Shown: piece by piece, positions 28,405 to 35,385 of the stretch | How the letters are laid out: the number at the start of each line of letters is the position of its first letter | Numbering within the stretch: position 1 is the first letter of the stretch | Assembly (NCBI GenBank): GCA_025054715.1 | Contig: JANWYH010000012.1 | Span: 1-37,388 of the forward strand | Reading direction: 5' to 3' | Origin: Pyrinomonadaceae bacterium | GTDB taxonomy: Bacteria; Acidobacteriota; Blastocatellia; Pyrinomonadales; Pyrinomonadaceae | DNA length: 37,388 nt | Made by a program: the position numbers and the translations under genes | The notes under the pieces: generated by a model | The model's database searches: none | Seen by the model: only the letters and a program-made list of their open reading frames with translations | Told to the model about the DNA's origin: nothing

Positions 28405-29493
28405 ATGGAAGAAATTATAAGGGCGATCTTTCCTGTAATTGTTTACTTCGGAGCTATTTTTCTTGCCTTCAACGGTGTTTTAATAATCGTTGCCTATACT
28501 GTTTTAGCAGAGCGAAAAGTTTTAGGCTGGATTCAAGGGCGTATAGGTCCAAATCGCGTTGGACCTTGGGGATTGCTTCAACCATTTGCAGACCTTTTGA
28601 AGTTTATCTTCAAAGAAGAAATAGCGCCTGATAAATCCACAAAATTTGTTTACTACCTTGCGCCGTTAGTTGCGTTGATATGCGCTTTGATGCCAATAGT
28701 TGTTTATCCGTTTGGTCCGCCAATCAAAACGATTGATTGGAGTTTTTTACCTTATGGGCTTGGCGAAGGTATCAGAGAATTGCCCCTTAGAATAGCAGAT
28801 TTCGATGTGGCACTCCTTTATGTGCTTTCGATTACTTCAGTTGGCGTTTATGGAATTGCGCTTGCCGGCTGGGCTTCTAATTCAAAGTATTCGTTGATGG
28901 GTGGACTTCGTTCATCGGCTCAGATGATTTCATACGAGCTGGCAATGGGAGCATCTATTTTGGGTGTAGTAATGATGGCAGGAAGCCTTAGCATCGGTAA
29001 AATAATCGAGGCGCAGACACAGTATCCGACAAAATGGTTTATTATCCCGCAGTTTGTAGGTTTTATTGTATTTCTAACAGCGGCTTTTGCTGAGACGAAT
29101 CGTGTTCCGTTTGATTTGCCAGAAGCAGAAACAGAGCTAGTTGCAGGATTTCACACGGAGTATTCAGCGCTTAAGTTTGCGCTTTTCTTCATGGCTGAAT
29201 ATGTCAACATGTTTACAGTTTCCGTAATGTGCTCGACACTTTTCCTTGGTGGCTGGTATGTACCTGGTCTTAGCCATGTTTTTGAAGTTGGGTCTATTCC
29301 TTACGCGATAGTAAGTCACGTAGCTTTCTTAATGAAGGTATTTTTCTTTTTATTTCTCTATATATGGGTTCGCGGGACTTTGCCGAGATTTCGATTCGAT
29401 CAACTAATGAGTTTCGGTTGGAAGTTTTTGCTTCCTGTAGCAATCGGTAATCTAGTTTTCACGATGATAATGGTTTATTTTGGAATCTTTTAA
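28405..29493 (+). CDS. nuoH: NADH-quinone oxidoreductase subunit H
   Basis: Membrane subunit at the junction of the two arms; it forms the mouth of the quinone channel. 362 residues with about eight to nine membrane spans. Signatures: LAERKVLGWIQGRIGPNRVG, GLLQPFADLLKFIFKEE, and the AFAETNRVPFDLPEAETELV loop followed by GFHTEYSALKFALFF, all with the conserved acidic residues of the E-channel. It starts 40 bases after nuoG. The AT-rich gap has a weak promoter-like pair that is not convincing. Confidence 0.97.
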   Translation: MEEIIRAIFPVIVYFGAIFLAFNGVLIIVAYTVLAERKVLGWIQGRIGPNRVGPWGLLQPFADLLKFIFKEEIAPDKSTKFVYYLAPLVALICALMPIVVYPFGPPIKTIDWSFLPYGLGEGIRELPLRIADFDVALLYVLSITSVGVYGIALAGWASNSKYSLMGGLRSSAQMISYELAMGASILGVVMMAGSLSIGKIIEAQTQYPTKWFIIPQFVGFIVFLTAAFAETNRVPFDLPEAETELVAGFHTEYSALKFALFFMAEYVNMFTVSVMCSTLFLGGWYVPGLSHVFEVGSIPYAIVSHVAFLMKVFFFLFLYIWVRGTLPRFRFDQLMSFGWKFLLPVAIGNLVFTMIMVYFGIF

Positions 29494-29500
29494 GGTGTTT

Positions 29501-30025
29501 ATGGTGTCTTTGCTTTTCTTTGTGTTGGCAGGTTTGGCGATTGCTTGTTCGATTTTGATGGTATATCACAAGAATCCTCTTTACAGCGCTATATCGCTCA
29601 TAGGTGTTTTCATTGCGCTTGCTTGTATTTACCTTTTGCTTGCTGCGCCTTTTATTGCAGTAACTCAGGTTTTAGTCTATGCAGGCGCGATAATGGTGCT
29701 TGTTATTTTCGTGATAATGCTTTTAAATCTTGAAGAAGACAAACCGCTTACAAGGCTTCGTTATCTTTATCTAGTCGGTATTGTATTGGGACTAGCACTT
29801 TTTTTGCAGACACTTTTTATTTATCAAGCTGTCAAGAGTGTAAGTCGGTCGGCGCCGGCAGAGGCGACGGCGGGGCTTACCATGAATATCGGGCGAGCAA
29901 TGTTTACCGAATACCTTTTGCCCGTGGAAATAGTCGGTGTGTTACTTTTGATGGCTATAGTCGGTGCGATGATTTTATCTCGCAAAAATGGTCAATTTCA
30001 ATCTGAAGAGAAAAAGGAAGATTAA
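29501..30025 (+). CDS. nuoJ: NADH-quinone oxidoreductase subunit J
   Basis: Membrane subunit of 174 residues with five spans; it carries the TM3 pi-bulge region (VTQVLVYAGAIMVLVIFVIM) that changes shape during turnover. The last span is EIVGVLLLMAIVGAMIL. The ATG at 29501 is preceded by TAAGGTG that overlaps the nuoH stop; an in-frame TTG at 29480 would overlap nuoH and is less likely. Only seven bases separate it from nuoH, so there is no room for nuoI, which usually lies here. Confidence 0.95.
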   Translation: MVSLLFFVLAGLAIACSILMVYHKNPLYSAISLIGVFIALACIYLLLAAPFIAVTQVLVYAGAIMVLVIFVIMLLNLEEDKPLTRLRYLYLVGIVLGLALFLQTLFIYQAVKSVSRSAPAEATAGLTMNIGRAMFTEYLLPVEIVGVLLLMAIVGAMILSRKNGQFQSEEKKED

Positions 30026-30406: not shown

Positions 30407-32518
30407 ATGATAGAGAATAATTTTCTAAGCCTTATAATTTTTGCGCCTCTTTTAGGAGCCATAATCAACTGGTTGATAGGAAGGCGTCTAAGAAGCGAAG
30501 CTTTTAGTGGGACGGTTGCCTGCTTGGCAATCGGTGTTTCCACCGTGGTTGCCTTTATGATTGCCTTCGGGATAGGAACACCGCACGAAGGCGCTCTTTT
30601 TATGCCTGAAGGTAAGCCCGTTTTCGATCATATCTGGACATGGATCGAGGTTGGGCGTTTTAGAGCAGATTTCGGGCTTGCTATGGACCGGCTTTCTGGT
30701 ATTTACTCTCTTTTTGTTACTTTTGTAGGCTTGTTGATACATATTTTTGCGACCGGCTACATGCATGGCGACGGCGGTTATTATCGCTTTTTTGCCTACA
30801 TGAATCTTTTCATGTTCTCAATGCTTACGCTTATTCTCGCCGATAATTTCCTGCTGATGTTTGTAGGCTGGGAAGGAGTAGGGCTTTGTTCATATCTTCT
30901 AATTGGCTACTACATCAAATGGGACACGGCACGCCGTGCTGCTAAAAAAGCTTTCGTAATGAATCGAATCGGGGATTGGGGCGTGATAATGGGGGTTTTG
31001 CTGGTTTTTACGCTTACAGGTTCTATTTCCTTTTTTGATAAGGCGATTGGCGAAGATAAGATAGAAAGCGCATTAAGAATAATAAGCGAGATGCCAGCAG
31101 AGCCTTTTACCTTTGCTGCAATCTTTGCTGGAGGAGTCACTTCAGCTGCTATTTTGCTTTTTATTGGTGCTACTGGAAAGTCGGCTCAAATCCCTTTATT
31201 TACTTGGCTTCCGGACGCTATGGCTGGACCAACGCCAGTATCAGCTTTAATTCATGCAGCTACAATGGTGACGGCGGGTGTTTACATGGTTGTTCGTTGT
31301 AATGCGATTTATTTGAATGCGCCTTCGGCGATGCTAGTTGTTGCGATAATTGGCTGTGCAACGGCTGTTTTCGCTGCAAGTATCGGTCTAGCTCAAAACG
31401 ACATAAAGAAAGTATTAGCATACTCAACCGTGTCTCAACTTGGATACATGTTCTTGGCTTGCGGTGTTGGTGCCTTTATCGCTGCTATATTTCATGTGCT
31501 GACTCATGCGTTTTTCAAAGCACTGTTGTTTTTAGGTGCTGGTTCTGTGATTCACGGGATGCATCATGAACAAGACATGCGACGGATGGGCGGGCTAAGA
31601 AAATACATGCCCATAACCTTTGCAACTATGGTAACGGGCTGGCTAGCAATCGCCGGGATACCTATTTTTGCAGGATTCTTTTCAAAGGATGAAATTCTTT
31701 ATAAAACCTTCATAGCCAAAAATTTGCCAGCAAACTTAAACTACATACTCTGGGCTGTAGGGCTTATAACTGCCGTTTTAACTGCCGTTTACATGACCAG
31801 AATGATGGTGATGACTTTCTGGGGTAGAGAAAGATTTGACCTTGAGCTCCCTGAAAGGCCGGATACTCCTTTCGAAGAGGAGCACCATGAAACTCATCAT
31901 AAACCTCACGAATCTCCTTGGGTTATGACTGTTCCTTTGATTGTTCTTGCATTTCTTTCAACTTTTGGCGGGCTAATTGGAGTTCCTTATGCTCTGAGTT
32001 CCCTTGTTGGCTTAAAAGATGTAAACGTTTTTGAGCATACACTTGAACCTGTAATAGTAAAGGAGAACAAGCATCAGACAGTCTCTAGTGAGGAGAAAAC
32101 AGCCGTAGAGCATTTAACTCAGAAACATCATTCACCTGAAGAAATTCAGACAGAGAGGCTTTTGGCAGGACTTTCCGTAATTTTGGCGGTTATAGGCATT
32201 GGAGTAGGCTGGGCGGTGTTTAGTAAGAATCCGTTGCTTAAGATGCCAAAGGTTCTTGAGCGTAAATGGTATGTTGATGAAATTTATAATGGTTTGATAG
32301 TTGATCCATTAACGAATCTTGCGAGACGTGCTCTTTGGAAGGGATTTGATCTAGGTTTTGTTGATGGTGTTGTAAATGGCGTAGGTGCTTTTATTGTGGC
32401 CATGGGTGGGCTAATTCGTAGGATACAAGTTGGGTTTGTTAGATTCTATGCTGCGGTTATCTTACTTGGTGCGTTGCTGATAGTCGGATATTTTCTTTAC
32501 TATGCGTTAAAGTTATGA
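30407..32518 (+). CDS. nuoL: NADH-quinone oxidoreductase subunit L (antiporter-like)
   Basis: Distal proton-pumping subunit related to MrpA antiporters; 703 residues, longer than E. coli NuoL (613). Antiporter core motifs: FVGWEGVGLCSYLLIGYY (with the essential Glu), GKSAQIPLFTWLPDAMAGPT (Lys), VSALIHAATMVTAGVYM, and KKVLAYSTVSQLGYMFLACG. The last ~60 residues hold the long lateral helix and last span (KWYVDEIYNGLIVDPL onward). Between them is a His/Glu-rich insert: EEEHHETHHKPHE around 31879-31912 and EHLTQKHHSPEE farther on. ATG at 30407 has GGGG five bases upstream; GTG at 30401 is the alternative. It follows nuoK by 70 bases and its stop touches the next open frame. Confidence 0.96.
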   Translation: MIENNFLSLIIFAPLLGAIINWLIGRRLRSEAFSGTVACLAIGVSTVVAFMIAFGIGTPHEGALFMPEGKPVFDHIWTWIEVGRFRADFGLAMDRLSGIYSLFVTFVGLLIHIFATGYMHGDGGYYRFFAYMNLFMFSMLTLILADNFLLMFVGWEGVGLCSYLLIGYYIKWDTARRAAKKAFVMNRIGDWGVIMGVLLVFTLTGSISFFDKAIGEDKIESALRIISEMPAEPFTFAAIFAGGVTSAAILLFIGATGKSAQIPLFTWLPDAMAGPTPVSALIHAATMVTAGVYMVVRCNAIYLNAPSAMLVVAIIGCATAVFAASIGLAQNDIKKVLAYSTVSQLGYMFLACGVGAFIAAIFHVLTHAFFKALLFLGAGSVIHGMHHEQDMRRMGGLRKYMPITFATMVTGWLAIAGIPIFAGFFSKDEILYKTFIAKNLPANLNYILWAVGLITAVLTAVYMTRMMVMTFWGRERFDLELPERPDTPFEEEHHETHHKPHESPWVMTVPLIVLAFLSTFGGLIGVPYALSSLVGLKDVNVFEHTLEPVIVKENKHQTVSSEEKTAVEHLTQKHHSPEEIQTERLLAGLSVILAVIGIGVGWAVFSKNPLLKMPKVLERKWYVDEIYNGLIVDPLTNLARRALWKGFDLGFVDGVVNGVGAFIVAMGGLIRRIQVGFVRFYAAVILLGALLIVGYFLYYALKL

Positions 32519-32541
32519 TGATGGTAACTGGGAGGTCAAAC

Positions 32542-33087
32542 ATGACAGTTCGTACCAGAGTTTATCGCGTTCCTATAGTTTCTGAATCGGAGTGGAGATT
32601 TGATACTTCAGCAGGGGTTGATATTTCAATTGGTCTTTCTTCTTTTTTGTTTTTGGCAGGTACCATAGGTGGTCTTTGGGTAAAGAGGGACTCAGATCGA
32701 GATCCTGTTCGACTGACTTATGGGGGATTAGGTGGCGGATTAGGGTTGAGTTTAGTTCCGTCTCCAGTAAATATCTCATTTTCATTACCACAAATGCCAA
32801 GTGAGGGCAGGATTTACAAAACAATACATGCTCGTGAAACGCTCGACCTAAATGAAATAAGGGGGCCTTTTTTGCTAATACAAGGTTCGGCAGACGCTGG
32901 ACCAGGGTATAGTGGATCACTTATGTTTCTTGGAGGAAGCAAACCTGATCCTTTGCTTCTTTTACAAAGATCCAATATAGTGGGTTTCATTTTAACATGC
33001 TATGGATGTGTAAGGTTTGGTGGTATGACAGCGACTCTGCTACCTTTTAATCTGAATCTCTCGGTGTATGGCGGTCTATTACTTTGA
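32542..33087 (+). CDS. Unrecognised glycine-rich protein between nuoL and nuoM
   Basis: A 181-residue protein of no family I can name. The ATG at 32542 is preferred because GGGAGG lies six bases upstream; an ATG at 32515, overlapping the nuoL stop as ATGA, would add nine residues. After a polar start (MTVRTRVYRVPIVSESEW) comes a hydrophobic stretch (ISIGLSSFLFLAGTIGGLWV), a Gly-rich LTYGGLGGGLGLSLVP segment, and then alternating beta-like pattern with ASADAGPGYSG-like turns (QGSADAGPGYSGSLMFLGG) and a hydrophobic C-terminus. Two cysteines lie near the end (LTCYGCVRFGG). No clear signal peptide. It overlaps the next small membrane protein gene by 20 bases, so the three genes form a block translated together within the nuo operon. 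Confidence 0.7.
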   Translation: MTVRTRVYRVPIVSESEWRFDTSAGVDISIGLSSFLFLAGTIGGLWVKRDSDRDPVRLTYGGLGGGLGLSLVPSPVNISFSLPQMPSEGRIYKTIHARETLDLNEIRGPFLLIQGSADAGPGYSGSLMFLGGSKPDPLLLLQRSNIVGFILTCYGCVRFGGMTATLLPFNLNLSVYGGLLL

Positions 33088-33448
33088 AGTAGGATTACAT
33101 GAGATAGTCATTTTTTTGATGATTTTCAATCTTTTTGCTTTAGTGGTGTTGGGAATATTGACCTATAAGTGGCAGCACGAAAAAGCTGAGTTTATGCTCG
33201 AAAAGTGGGCTAAGATGAATAAGTACGAAATCCTAATGAAATCATACGCTAATCCTATAGGAACAGGTCCAGGGGTTGGTTCTAGAAATCCACAAATCAT
33301 GTACAGAGTTGTGGTTAAGGATAGTAAGGGTGAAAGAAGATCTGGAGTAATTAAAGTAGGAAGTAGATGGCTTGGTGTTTTTGAAGAAAAGATTACAGTG
33401 GATTGGGATGGTGATCAAGAAAATGCTTTCTACCGAAAGAGTAACTGA
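33068..33448 (+). CDS. Small single-span membrane protein, paralogue 1 (unknown function)
   Basis: A 126-residue protein. One membrane span at residues about 10-32 (HEIVIFLMIFNLFALVVLGI), then a helical KAEFMLEKWAKMNKYEIL segment and a compact C-terminal domain with YRVVVKDSKGERRSGVIKVG, SRWLGVFEEKITVDWD. The last part looks like a small beta domain facing the cytoplasm or the periplasm. The next gene encodes a clear relative: W-x3-N-x-YEIL and (V/L)(I/V)KVGSxxLGxF are shared. No ribosome site is seen; it overlaps the gene before by 20 bases and the gene after by 26. I do not recognise a named family; function unknown. Confidence 0.72.
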   Translation: MAVYYFEVGLHEIVIFLMIFNLFALVVLGILTYKWQHEKAEFMLEKWAKMNKYEILMKSYANPIGTGPGVGSRNPQIMYRVVVKDSKGERRSGVIKVGSRWLGVFEEKITVDWDGDQENAFYRKSN

Positions 33449-33746
33449 CTTTTTTTTATTGGTTCCATTGGTTGGTTTTCAGATACTGTTTTCTACCTTA
33501 CAATTCCTCTGGCTATACTACTTAAATAGAAAGAAGGCAGATCTGTTGTTGGAGAGATGGGCGTTGATGAATGACTACGAAATTTTGGAGAAAAGAAAGA
33601 TATGCTCGCTAAGAGAAGGTTTTATGCAAACTAAGTATTTGGTTTGCTTCTTAGATTCAGAAAAGAGAAAGAAAAGAGGATTAGTAAAAGTCGGGAGTAA
33701 ATATCTGGGAGCTTTTTCTAAAAGAGTAGTTTATGCTGAGTGTTAG
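33423..33746 (+). CDS. Small single-span membrane protein, paralogue 2 (unknown function)
   Basis: A 107-residue protein from ATG 33423 (the frame stays open to 33372, but the extra residues are unlike the paralogue). One membrane span (VTDFFLLVPLVGFQILFSTL, residues about 7-30), then KADLLLERWALMNDYEILEK and the C-terminal LVKVGSKYLGAFSKRVV. It lines up with the protein encoded just before: KADLLLERWALMNDYEIL against KAEFMLEKWAKMNKYEIL. It has lost the long Gly-rich linker and the acidic tail, and is more basic. The pair looks like a tandem duplication that diverged. Followed after 58 AT-rich bases by nuoM. Confidence 0.68.
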   Translation: MLSTERVTDFFLLVPLVGFQILFSTLQFLWLYYLNRKKADLLLERWALMNDYEILEKRKICSLREGFMQTKYLVCFLDSEKRKKRGLVKVGSKYLGAFSKRVVYAEC

Positions 33747-33804: not shown

Positions 33805-35385
33805 ATGAGTTTTCTTACGAATAAGTTGCTTACGATTTTAATATTGTTTCCTATCTTGGGTGCAGTCTCACTCATTGTATACCAGCTTTTTTCGAAGAGA
33901 AAAAACCACCTGAAGTGGTTGGCATTAGGTTTCGTAACGATAGAGTTTTTAATTTCACTTTTGCTACTGACGTATACGGGAAAGTCAGCAGGAGGATTTT
34001 ATTTTGAGGAGAATGTTTCCTGGATTGCCACGATTGGTGCAAATTACCATATCGGAGTTGATGGTTTAAGTCTTTGGCTCGTGCTTCTTACGACCTTTAT
34101 AATGCCGATAACGGTGCTTTCTACATGGCATGCAGTTGAAAAGCGTCCGACGGCGTTTTATGTGTTTTTGTTGCTTTTAGAGACGACTATGATTGGAACG
34201 TTCGTCTCGCTTGATCTTCTGCTTTTCTACCTATTTTTTGAAGCTTCGCTCGTTCCGATGCTGTTTTTAATTGGAATTTGGGGAAGCGACAATAGAATTT
34301 ACTCGGCTATAAAATTCTTTATTTATACTGCTGTGGGTAGCCTATTAATGCTGGCAGCGATTTTGGCGCTTTATTTTATTCATCAAGACGCAACCGGCAT
34401 CGGCACTTTCGACTATGTTACGATTCTAAATTCAATGCGTGTTGGAAATTTAGTTATTGCGGGGCAAACGGCGGCTTTATTGTTTTGGGCATTTGCTATT
34501 GCTTTCTCGATTAAGGTTCCGCTGTTTCCTTTTCATACATGGCTTCCTGATGCACATACGGACGCTCCGACGGCTGGTTCAGTCATACTTGCTGCGATTT
34601 TGCTTAAGATGGGAACATATGGTTTGATGCGTTTTAATTTCATGCTTTTTCCTGAAGCATCTAGAGAATACGCCTACATATTCATTTTGCTTGCTATTAT
34701 TGGGATAACTTACGGTGCTCTAGTAGCGATGGTTCAGCCCGATATGAAGCGGCTTGTAGCATATTCGTCGGTGGCTCACATGGGATTTGTTGTTCTAGGC
34801 ATGTTTTCATTTACGGAAGCCGGTATGCAAGGAGCCTTGTATCAGATGCTAAATCATGGAGTTTCAACCGGGGCACTCTTTTTGTTGGTAGGATTTATTT
34901 ATGAAAGACGTCATACTCGGTTGATTGAAGAGTTTGGTGGGCTGGCAAATGTGATGCCGATTTATGCTACCATTTTCGTCATTACGGCAATGTCTTCGAT
35001 AGGACTGCCTTTTCTAAATGGATTTGTGGGTGAATTTTTGATATTGCTTGGTATGTGGACTTCTGTAGCGGTATCTCATCCGTGGATTATAACTATGATT
35101 GCAGGCACAGGTGTAATCCTAGCCGCTGTCTATCTACTTTGGATGATTCAACGCGTGTTTTTCGGGAAGGTTACAAATGAAAAGAATAAAATTTTAGCGG
35201 ATTTGAGTTTGAGAGAGATTGGACTAATAGCTCCGCTTGTATTTTTGATGGTTTTTATGGGTGTTTATCCTTCGCCTTTCTTAAGTCGCTCGAAAGATAC
35301 GATTGTTTCAATTCAACAACGCGTGATCAGCGGTGAAAAAGGCGGCAGCTTCACTGCTAAACAAGAAGATAAAAAATTTGATTGA
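33805..35385 (+). CDS. nuoM: NADH-quinone oxidoreductase subunit M (antiporter-like)
   Basis: Proton-pumping membrane subunit, 526 residues and about 14 spans. Conserved: FYLFFEASLVPMLFLIGIWG with the essential Glu, KVPLFPFHTWLPDAHTDAPT with the Lys/His path, GSVILAAILLKMGTYGLMRF, and DMKRLVAYSSVAHMGFVVLG. The C-terminus has a charged tail (KGGSFTAKQEDKKFD). It follows the three unknown genes after a gap of 58 bases that holds no clear promoter, and is 13 bases before nuoN. Confidence 0.97.
   Translation: MSFLTNKLLTILILFPILGAVSLIVYQLFSKRKNHLKWLALGFVTIEFLISLLLLTYTGKSAGGFYFEENVSWIATIGANYHIGVDGLSLWLVLLTTFIMPITVLSTWHAVEKRPTAFYVFLLLLETTMIGTFVSLDLLLFYLFFEASLVPMLFLIGIWGSDNRIYSAIKFFIYTAVGSLLMLAAILALYFIHQDATGIGTFDYVTILNSMRVGNLVIAGQTAALLFWAFAIAFSIKVPLFPFHTWLPDAHTDAPTAGSVILAAILLKMGTYGLMRFNFMLFPEASREYAYIFILLAIIGITYGALVAMVQPDMKRLVAYSSVAHMGFVVLGMFSFTEAGMQGALYQMLNHGVSTGALFLLVGFIYERRHTRLIEEFGGLANVMPIYATIFVITAMSSIGLPFLNGFVGEFLILLGMWTSVAVSHPWIITMIAGTGVILAAVYLLWMIQRVFFGKVTNEKNKILADLSLREIGLIAPLVFLMVFMGVYPSPFLSRSKDTIVSIQQRVISGEKGGSFTAKQEDKKFD

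What the first reader, a model, noticed from the sequence alone, without database searches (positions are those of the whole stretch)
32515..33746. Three unknown genes wedged between nuoL and nuoM
A block of about 1.2 kb breaks the very conserved nuoL-M-N order. The genes overlap each other (20 and 26 bases) and the first has a strong ribosome site, so they are probably expressed with complex I. Two encode single-span membrane proteins, the other a Gly-rich protein with a hydrophobic stretch. They could be accessory or assembly factors of the membrane arm, or a passenger insertion.
Basis: partly seen in the sequence, partly recalled or inferred. Interest (0 to 1): 0.6.

Follow-up and report, generated by a model that had tools for sequence, protein, structure and literature searches.

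The report
Passenger gene pair in respiratory operon
Three small unknown genes really do interrupt the respiratory complex I genes of this acidobacterium; they look like a hitchhiking cassette, possibly an antibacterial protein plus two membrane-bound protectors, that settled in an operon which in this bacterial family often takes in passengers such as toxin-antitoxin genes.

Summary
In detail: three co-directional open genes (32542-33746) lie between nuoL and nuoM. None matches Pfam, NCBIfam, PHROGs or PADLOC. ORF2 and ORF3 are diverged paralogues (34%), each with one N-terminal membrane helix. ORF1 is glycine-rich and predicted all-beta.

They are not a fixed part of complex I. The same-genus relative has 26 bases between nuoL and nuoM. 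An ORF1-ORF2 pair occurs in only 4 of 162 genomes of the class, in three lineages: here (L-M junction), in two species of another genus (K-L junction of nuo), and in one genome outside nuo. In this family the nuo operon is a landing site: 30 of 172 gene junctions hold an extra gene against 0 of 430 in the ribosomal operon; several extras are toxin-antitoxin genes.

Distant ORF1 relatives lie in a type VI secretion cluster near hcp, or beside cell-wall hydrolases. The low-confidence ORF1 model best resembles Rhodococcus Vap barrels (Z about 8).

Most likely this is a passenger cassette (about 0.75), more specifically effector-immunity-like (about 0.4). A complex I accessory role (about 0.15) is not excluded, because the pair entered nuo at two junctions. 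Function is untested.

The parts
30407..32518 (+). nuoL; ends ...YYALKL, two residues (IG) shorter than nuoL of G001, G105 and G107, so the insert begins at the nuoL stop codon
32530..32536 (+). GGGAGGT ribosome-binding site of ORF1, 5-base spacer
   Evidence: read directly from the sequence
32542..33087 (+). ORF1: 181 aa, glycine-rich, predicted all-beta; proposed cargo or effector-like protein
33068..33448 (+). ORF2: 126 aa, one N-terminal membrane helix plus small alpha+beta domain; proposed membrane-anchored partner or immunity protein; overlaps ORF1 by 20 nt
33423..33746 (+). ORF3: 107 aa, diverged paralogue of ORF2; overlaps ORF2 by 26 nt
33805..35385 (+). nuoM, intact, begins 58 bases after ORF3

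Best explanation
ORF1-ORF2-ORF3 is a passenger cassette that settled at the nuoL stop codon and is read out with the nuo operon. Shown: ORF1 and ORF2 form a conserved pair that moves as a unit; ORF2 is duplicated here as ORF3; the pair is patchy and sits at different sites; the nuo operon of this family takes in many unrelated genes, several of them toxin-antitoxin pairs. Inferred: ORF1 is a small membrane-active, effector-like beta-barrel (possibly loaded by the genome's type VI secretion system), and ORF2 and ORF3 are membrane-anchored immunity proteins that protect the producer and its kin. Docking in a steadily expressed, important operon would keep the protective genes expressed and make the cassette hard to lose. 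The passenger part is about 0.75 likely; the effector-immunity part about 0.4.
For: Absent from the same-genus genome, which has 26 bases at that junction. All four genomes with a close ORF1 carry ORF2 just downstream: window, G105, G107, G073. Two positions in nuo (L-M here, K-L in G105 and G107) and one outside. 30 of 172 nuo junctions hold an extra ORF of at least 100 aa versus 0 of 430 ribosomal-operon junctions. Extra genes include HicA/HicB, PIN_3 with CopG, PemK, AbiEii, Uma2, DUF4160/DUF2442. An ORF1 relative in G024 lies in a T6SS cluster, after tssC, hcp and one small membrane-protein gene, and before a DUF3592-like membrane protein (hhalign probability 95). Other ORF1 relatives lie beside M23 or CHAP hydrolases, and one is fused to an OmpA-like domain. 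The window genome encodes TssC, Hcp and neighbouring T6SS genes. Tandem paralogous immunity genes are a known pattern (PMC3482391). The ORF1 model's four best structural matches are all Rhodococcus Vap barrels, Z 7.9-8.1 over 100-110 of about 110 residues, next best 5.7; VapA permeabilises membranes for protons (PMC10100859).
Against: No toxicity, protection or secretion data exist. Neither protein matches a known toxin or immunity family. The ORF1 model has mean pLDDT 58 and only one of five models is usable; Foldseek itself finds nothing significant, and Z near 8 can be a common arrangement. The Pfam Vap model does not hit any ORF1 locus. T6SS is near-universal in the family genomes tested, so its presence says little. 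No transposase, integrase or clear target duplication marks an insertion, and base composition is close to the neighbours'. Most distant ORF1 relatives have no ORF2 partner, and the G024 partner is not detectably related to ORF2.
Confidence: 0.42

Rival explanations
1. A passenger cassette with another job: ORF1 is an envelope or secreted beta-barrel and ORF2/ORF3 its membrane partners, with no toxin activity.
For: All mobility and hotspot evidence applies equally. Not all nuo passengers are toxins: GNAT, TlpA-like, SIMPL and unknown secreted proteins also occur. One ORF1 relative is fused to an OmpA-like domain.
Against: The tight two-gene pairing with a duplicated membrane partner, the T6SS neighbour and the hydrolase neighbours lean towards a conflict function.
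Confidence: 0.35
2. Accessory or assembly factors of complex I, acting on the membrane arm.
For: In two of three lineages the pair lies inside nuo, near nuoK, nuoL and nuoM; if sites were uniform over about 2,400 junctions, two of three in 12 nuo junctions would be about 1 in 10,000 (rough inference). ORF2 and ORF3 are membrane proteins encoded in the same direction within the operon.
Against: Absent from nearly all relatives with a complete nuo operon, including the same genus; different junctions; G073 has the pair outside nuo; distant ORF1 relatives are not near nuo. The nuo operon accepts many unrelated genes, so co-location is weak evidence.
Confidence: 0.15
3. A classical intracellular toxin-antitoxin module like the HicBA, PIN-CopG and PemK pairs in sister operons.
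For: Same kind of site as known toxin-antitoxin pairs, e.g. PIN-CopG at nuoL-nuoM in G036.
Against: No match to any toxin-antitoxin family; the partner is membrane-anchored rather than DNA-binding, and ORF1 shows no nuclease-like or kinase-like features.
Confidence: 0.06
4. Chance or decaying reading frames.
For: No family match in curated libraries.
Against: Homologous pairs with intact frames in other genera, purifying selection on ORF2 (dN/dS 0.11), a strong ribosome site.
Confidence: 0.02

Closest known systems
Effector-immunity cassettes of polymorphic toxin and type VI secretion systems
   Same: Small cargo-like gene followed by membrane partner genes; tandem diverged paralogues of the partner; patchy distribution; one relative in a T6SS cluster near hcp
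   Different: No known toxin or immunity domain, no delivery marker fused to ORF1, located in nuo, activity untested
Toxin-antitoxin passengers (HicBA, PIN-CopG, PemK, AbiEii) in the nuo operons of relatives
   Same: Same operon, same kind of lineage-specific docking between nuo genes
   Different: Unrelated protein families; the partner is membrane-anchored
Rhodococcus Vap beta-barrel family (Pfam PF05526, R_equi_Vir)
   Same: Predicted order of four strands, short helix, further strands; glycine-rich; best structural matches of the ORF1 model (Z about 8)
   Different: No sequence match to the Pfam model; model confidence low; no link with virulence shown or claimed here

Membership tests
Passenger gene in the nuo operon | Absent from close relatives at that site | tested here: met
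   G001 (same genus) has 26 bases between nuoL stop and nuoM start
Passenger gene in the nuo operon | Homologues at other sites | tested here: met
   nuoK-nuoL in G105 and G107; outside nuo in G073
Effector-immunity pair | Two genes conserved together | tested here: met
   4 of 4 genomes with close ORF1 also have ORF2 directly downstream
Effector-immunity pair | Match to a known toxin or immunity family | tested here: not met
   Pfam, NCBIfam, PHROGs and PADLOC give none
Effector-immunity pair | ORF1 toxic, ORF2 or ORF3 protective | not testable with these tools
   Needs expression experiments
T6SS effector | Genetic link to T6SS genes | tested here: inconclusive
   Only the distant G024 relative is in a T6SS cluster near hcp; the window copy is not, though its genome has a T6SS
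Rhodococcus Vap family (PF05526) | Sequence match to the Pfam model | tested here: not met
   No hit over cut-off in 162 genomes and none at an ORF1 locus
Rhodococcus Vap family (PF05526) | Eight-stranded glycine-rich barrel with crossed topology | tested here: inconclusive
   Z 7.9-8.1 to four Vap structures, but model pLDDT 58
Complex I accessory subunit | Conserved with nuo across relatives | tested here: not met
   ORF2 in 5 of 162 genomes of the class; most of the nuo operons examined lack it

The most novel reading that the evidence does not exclude
ORF1 is the founder of an uncharacterised family of membrane-active, Vap-like glycine-rich beta-barrels used between bacteria, with ORF2/ORF3 as a new membrane-anchored immunity family, and the complex I operon of this acidobacterial family acts as a standing dock for such conflict cassettes.
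Probability: 0.2. Interest if true: 0.7.

Novelty: new variant of a known kind. Interest (0 to 1): 0.42.

Why it matters
If right, two undescribed protein families would gain a testable role, and a core respiratory operon usually thought of as fixed would turn out to be a recurrent docking site for selfish or defensive genes in one bacterial family. A proton-leak effector would also fit the energetics of the operon it sits in, though that is speculation.

Tried and rejected
Curated families (Pfam, NCBIfam, PHROGs, PADLOC): no match. Plasmid and phage records and viral contigs: no relatives. Foldseek against PDB and viral models: nothing significant. Fungal lectins appeared at E 0.3-0.8 with one profile but vanished with a larger one; dropped. 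A DUF3592 kinship of ORF2 was suggested by neighbourhood only and not supported by profile comparison. No clear direct repeats at the insert ends; no terminator-like site on the operon strand. Literature searches found no report of this insertion.

Full report
Observation. Three + strand reading frames lie between nuoL and nuoM. With the ribosome site GGGAGGT at 32530-32536, ORF1 most likely starts at 32542 (181 aa). ORF2 runs 33068-33448 (126 aa) and ORF3 33423-33746 (107 aa). The overlaps of 20 and 26 bases are as reported. The nuoL protein ends two residues earlier than in G001, G105 and G107, so the insert begins at its stop codon.

Distribution. The same-genus genome G001 has no copy and 26 bases at that junction. 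Over 162 genomes of the class, ORF2 is found in five genomes and a close ORF1 in four. In G105 and G107, members of another genus, the pair lies between nuoK and nuoL; in G073 it lies outside nuo. Three of these are named records: acidobacterial MAGs ACE_ACI6, ACE_ACI3 and SZAS-13. A more sensitive profile finds 18 ORF1-like stretches in 13 genomes.

Are the genes real? Between G105 and G107, ORF2 has dN/dS 0.11. ORF1 differs very little (dS 0.06 against 0.33-0.92 for nuo genes) because a tract covering the end of nuoK and most of ORF1 is nearly identical in the two species while its flanks are 76-93% identical. That is the mark of recent homologous exchange at this locus. ORF2 and ORF3 are paralogues at 34% identity.

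The operon as a dock. In 21 nuo loci of the family, 30 of 172 gene junctions hold an extra frame of at least 100 aa; in the S10-spc ribosomal operon of 20 genomes, 0 of 430 do (the loci came). The junctions are not independent by descent, nine of the 30 are at nuoM-nuoN (many a conserved TlpA-like gene), and the ribosomal operon is an extreme control, so the p-value (7e-18) overstates the case; the direction is clear. Pfam confirms HicB and HicA in G105 (G-H junction) and HicA in G002 (F-G), PemK in G006, AbiEii at nuoK-nuoL, Uma2, GNAT and DUF4160/DUF2442; G036, outside the family, has PIN_3 with a CopG-like partner at nuoL-nuoM.

What ORF1 may be. It matches no curated family. Its distant relative in G024 sits in a T6SS cluster after tssC, hcp and one small membrane-protein gene, and before a DUF3592-like membrane protein. 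Others lie near M23 or CHAP hydrolases, and one is fused to an OmpA-like domain. The window genome has a T6SS, but so do nearly all family genomes tested. AlphaFold gives four strands, a short helix and further strands at low confidence. The four best structural matches are Rhodococcus Vap barrels, Z 7.9-8.1, next 5.7, but the Pfam Vap model does not detect the family. VapD is described as a glycine-rich eight-stranded barrel with relatives of unknown function in diverse bacteria (PMC4118825), and VapA makes membranes leak protons (PMC10100859). This is a lead, not a classification.

What ORF2 and ORF3 may be. Each has an N-terminal membrane helix; the ORF2 model adds a small four-stranded domain (pLDDT 75) that resembles common cystatin- or NTF2-like arrangements only weakly (Z up to 6.1). 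Duplicated, diverged, overlapping partner genes are typical of immunity genes (PMC3482391), but not proof.

Verdict. The insertion is real and is best read as a passenger cassette. Effector-immunity is the most specific mechanism that fits, at modest confidence. A complex I role cannot be dismissed because the pair entered nuo at two different junctions.

Noticed in passing
28405-30025 (nuoH-nuoJ): No nuoI between nuoH and nuoJ in the window or in the relatives' operons examined; whether nuoI lies elsewhere in the genome was not checked.
   Followed up: no
L060 and L061, nuo operons of G105 and G107: A tract of roughly 500 bases over the end of nuoK and most of ORF1 is nearly identical between two species whose flanks are 76-93% identical, implying recent homologous recombination; a shorter tract lies in nuoL.
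   Followed up: partly
L060 nuoG-nuoH, L112 nuoF-nuoG, L100 nuoG-nuoH, L115 nuoL-nuoM: HicB/HicA, HicA, PemK-like and PIN_3/CopG-like toxin-antitoxin genes sit inside nuo operons.
   Followed up: partly
L099, L101 and L103, nuoK-nuoL: AbiEii-like genes of about 208 aa recur at this junction in several genera (Pfam tested on the L099 copy); the L103 copy looks frame-broken, and L100 seems to hold a shortened remnant.
   Followed up: no
L105-L111 and L113, nuoM-nuoN: A TlpA-like thioredoxin gene is common here (Pfam tested on the L111 copy) and may be a native member of the operon in part of the family.
   Followed up: no
L060 and L061, nuoL-nuoM: A conserved 210-aa gene with no clear Pfam match occupies this junction in both genomes.
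   Followed up: no
L090 11205-11825: A lipase-like gene (weak Mbeg1-like match) lies between tssE-like and tssF-like genes of the T6SS cluster of G115.
   Followed up: no
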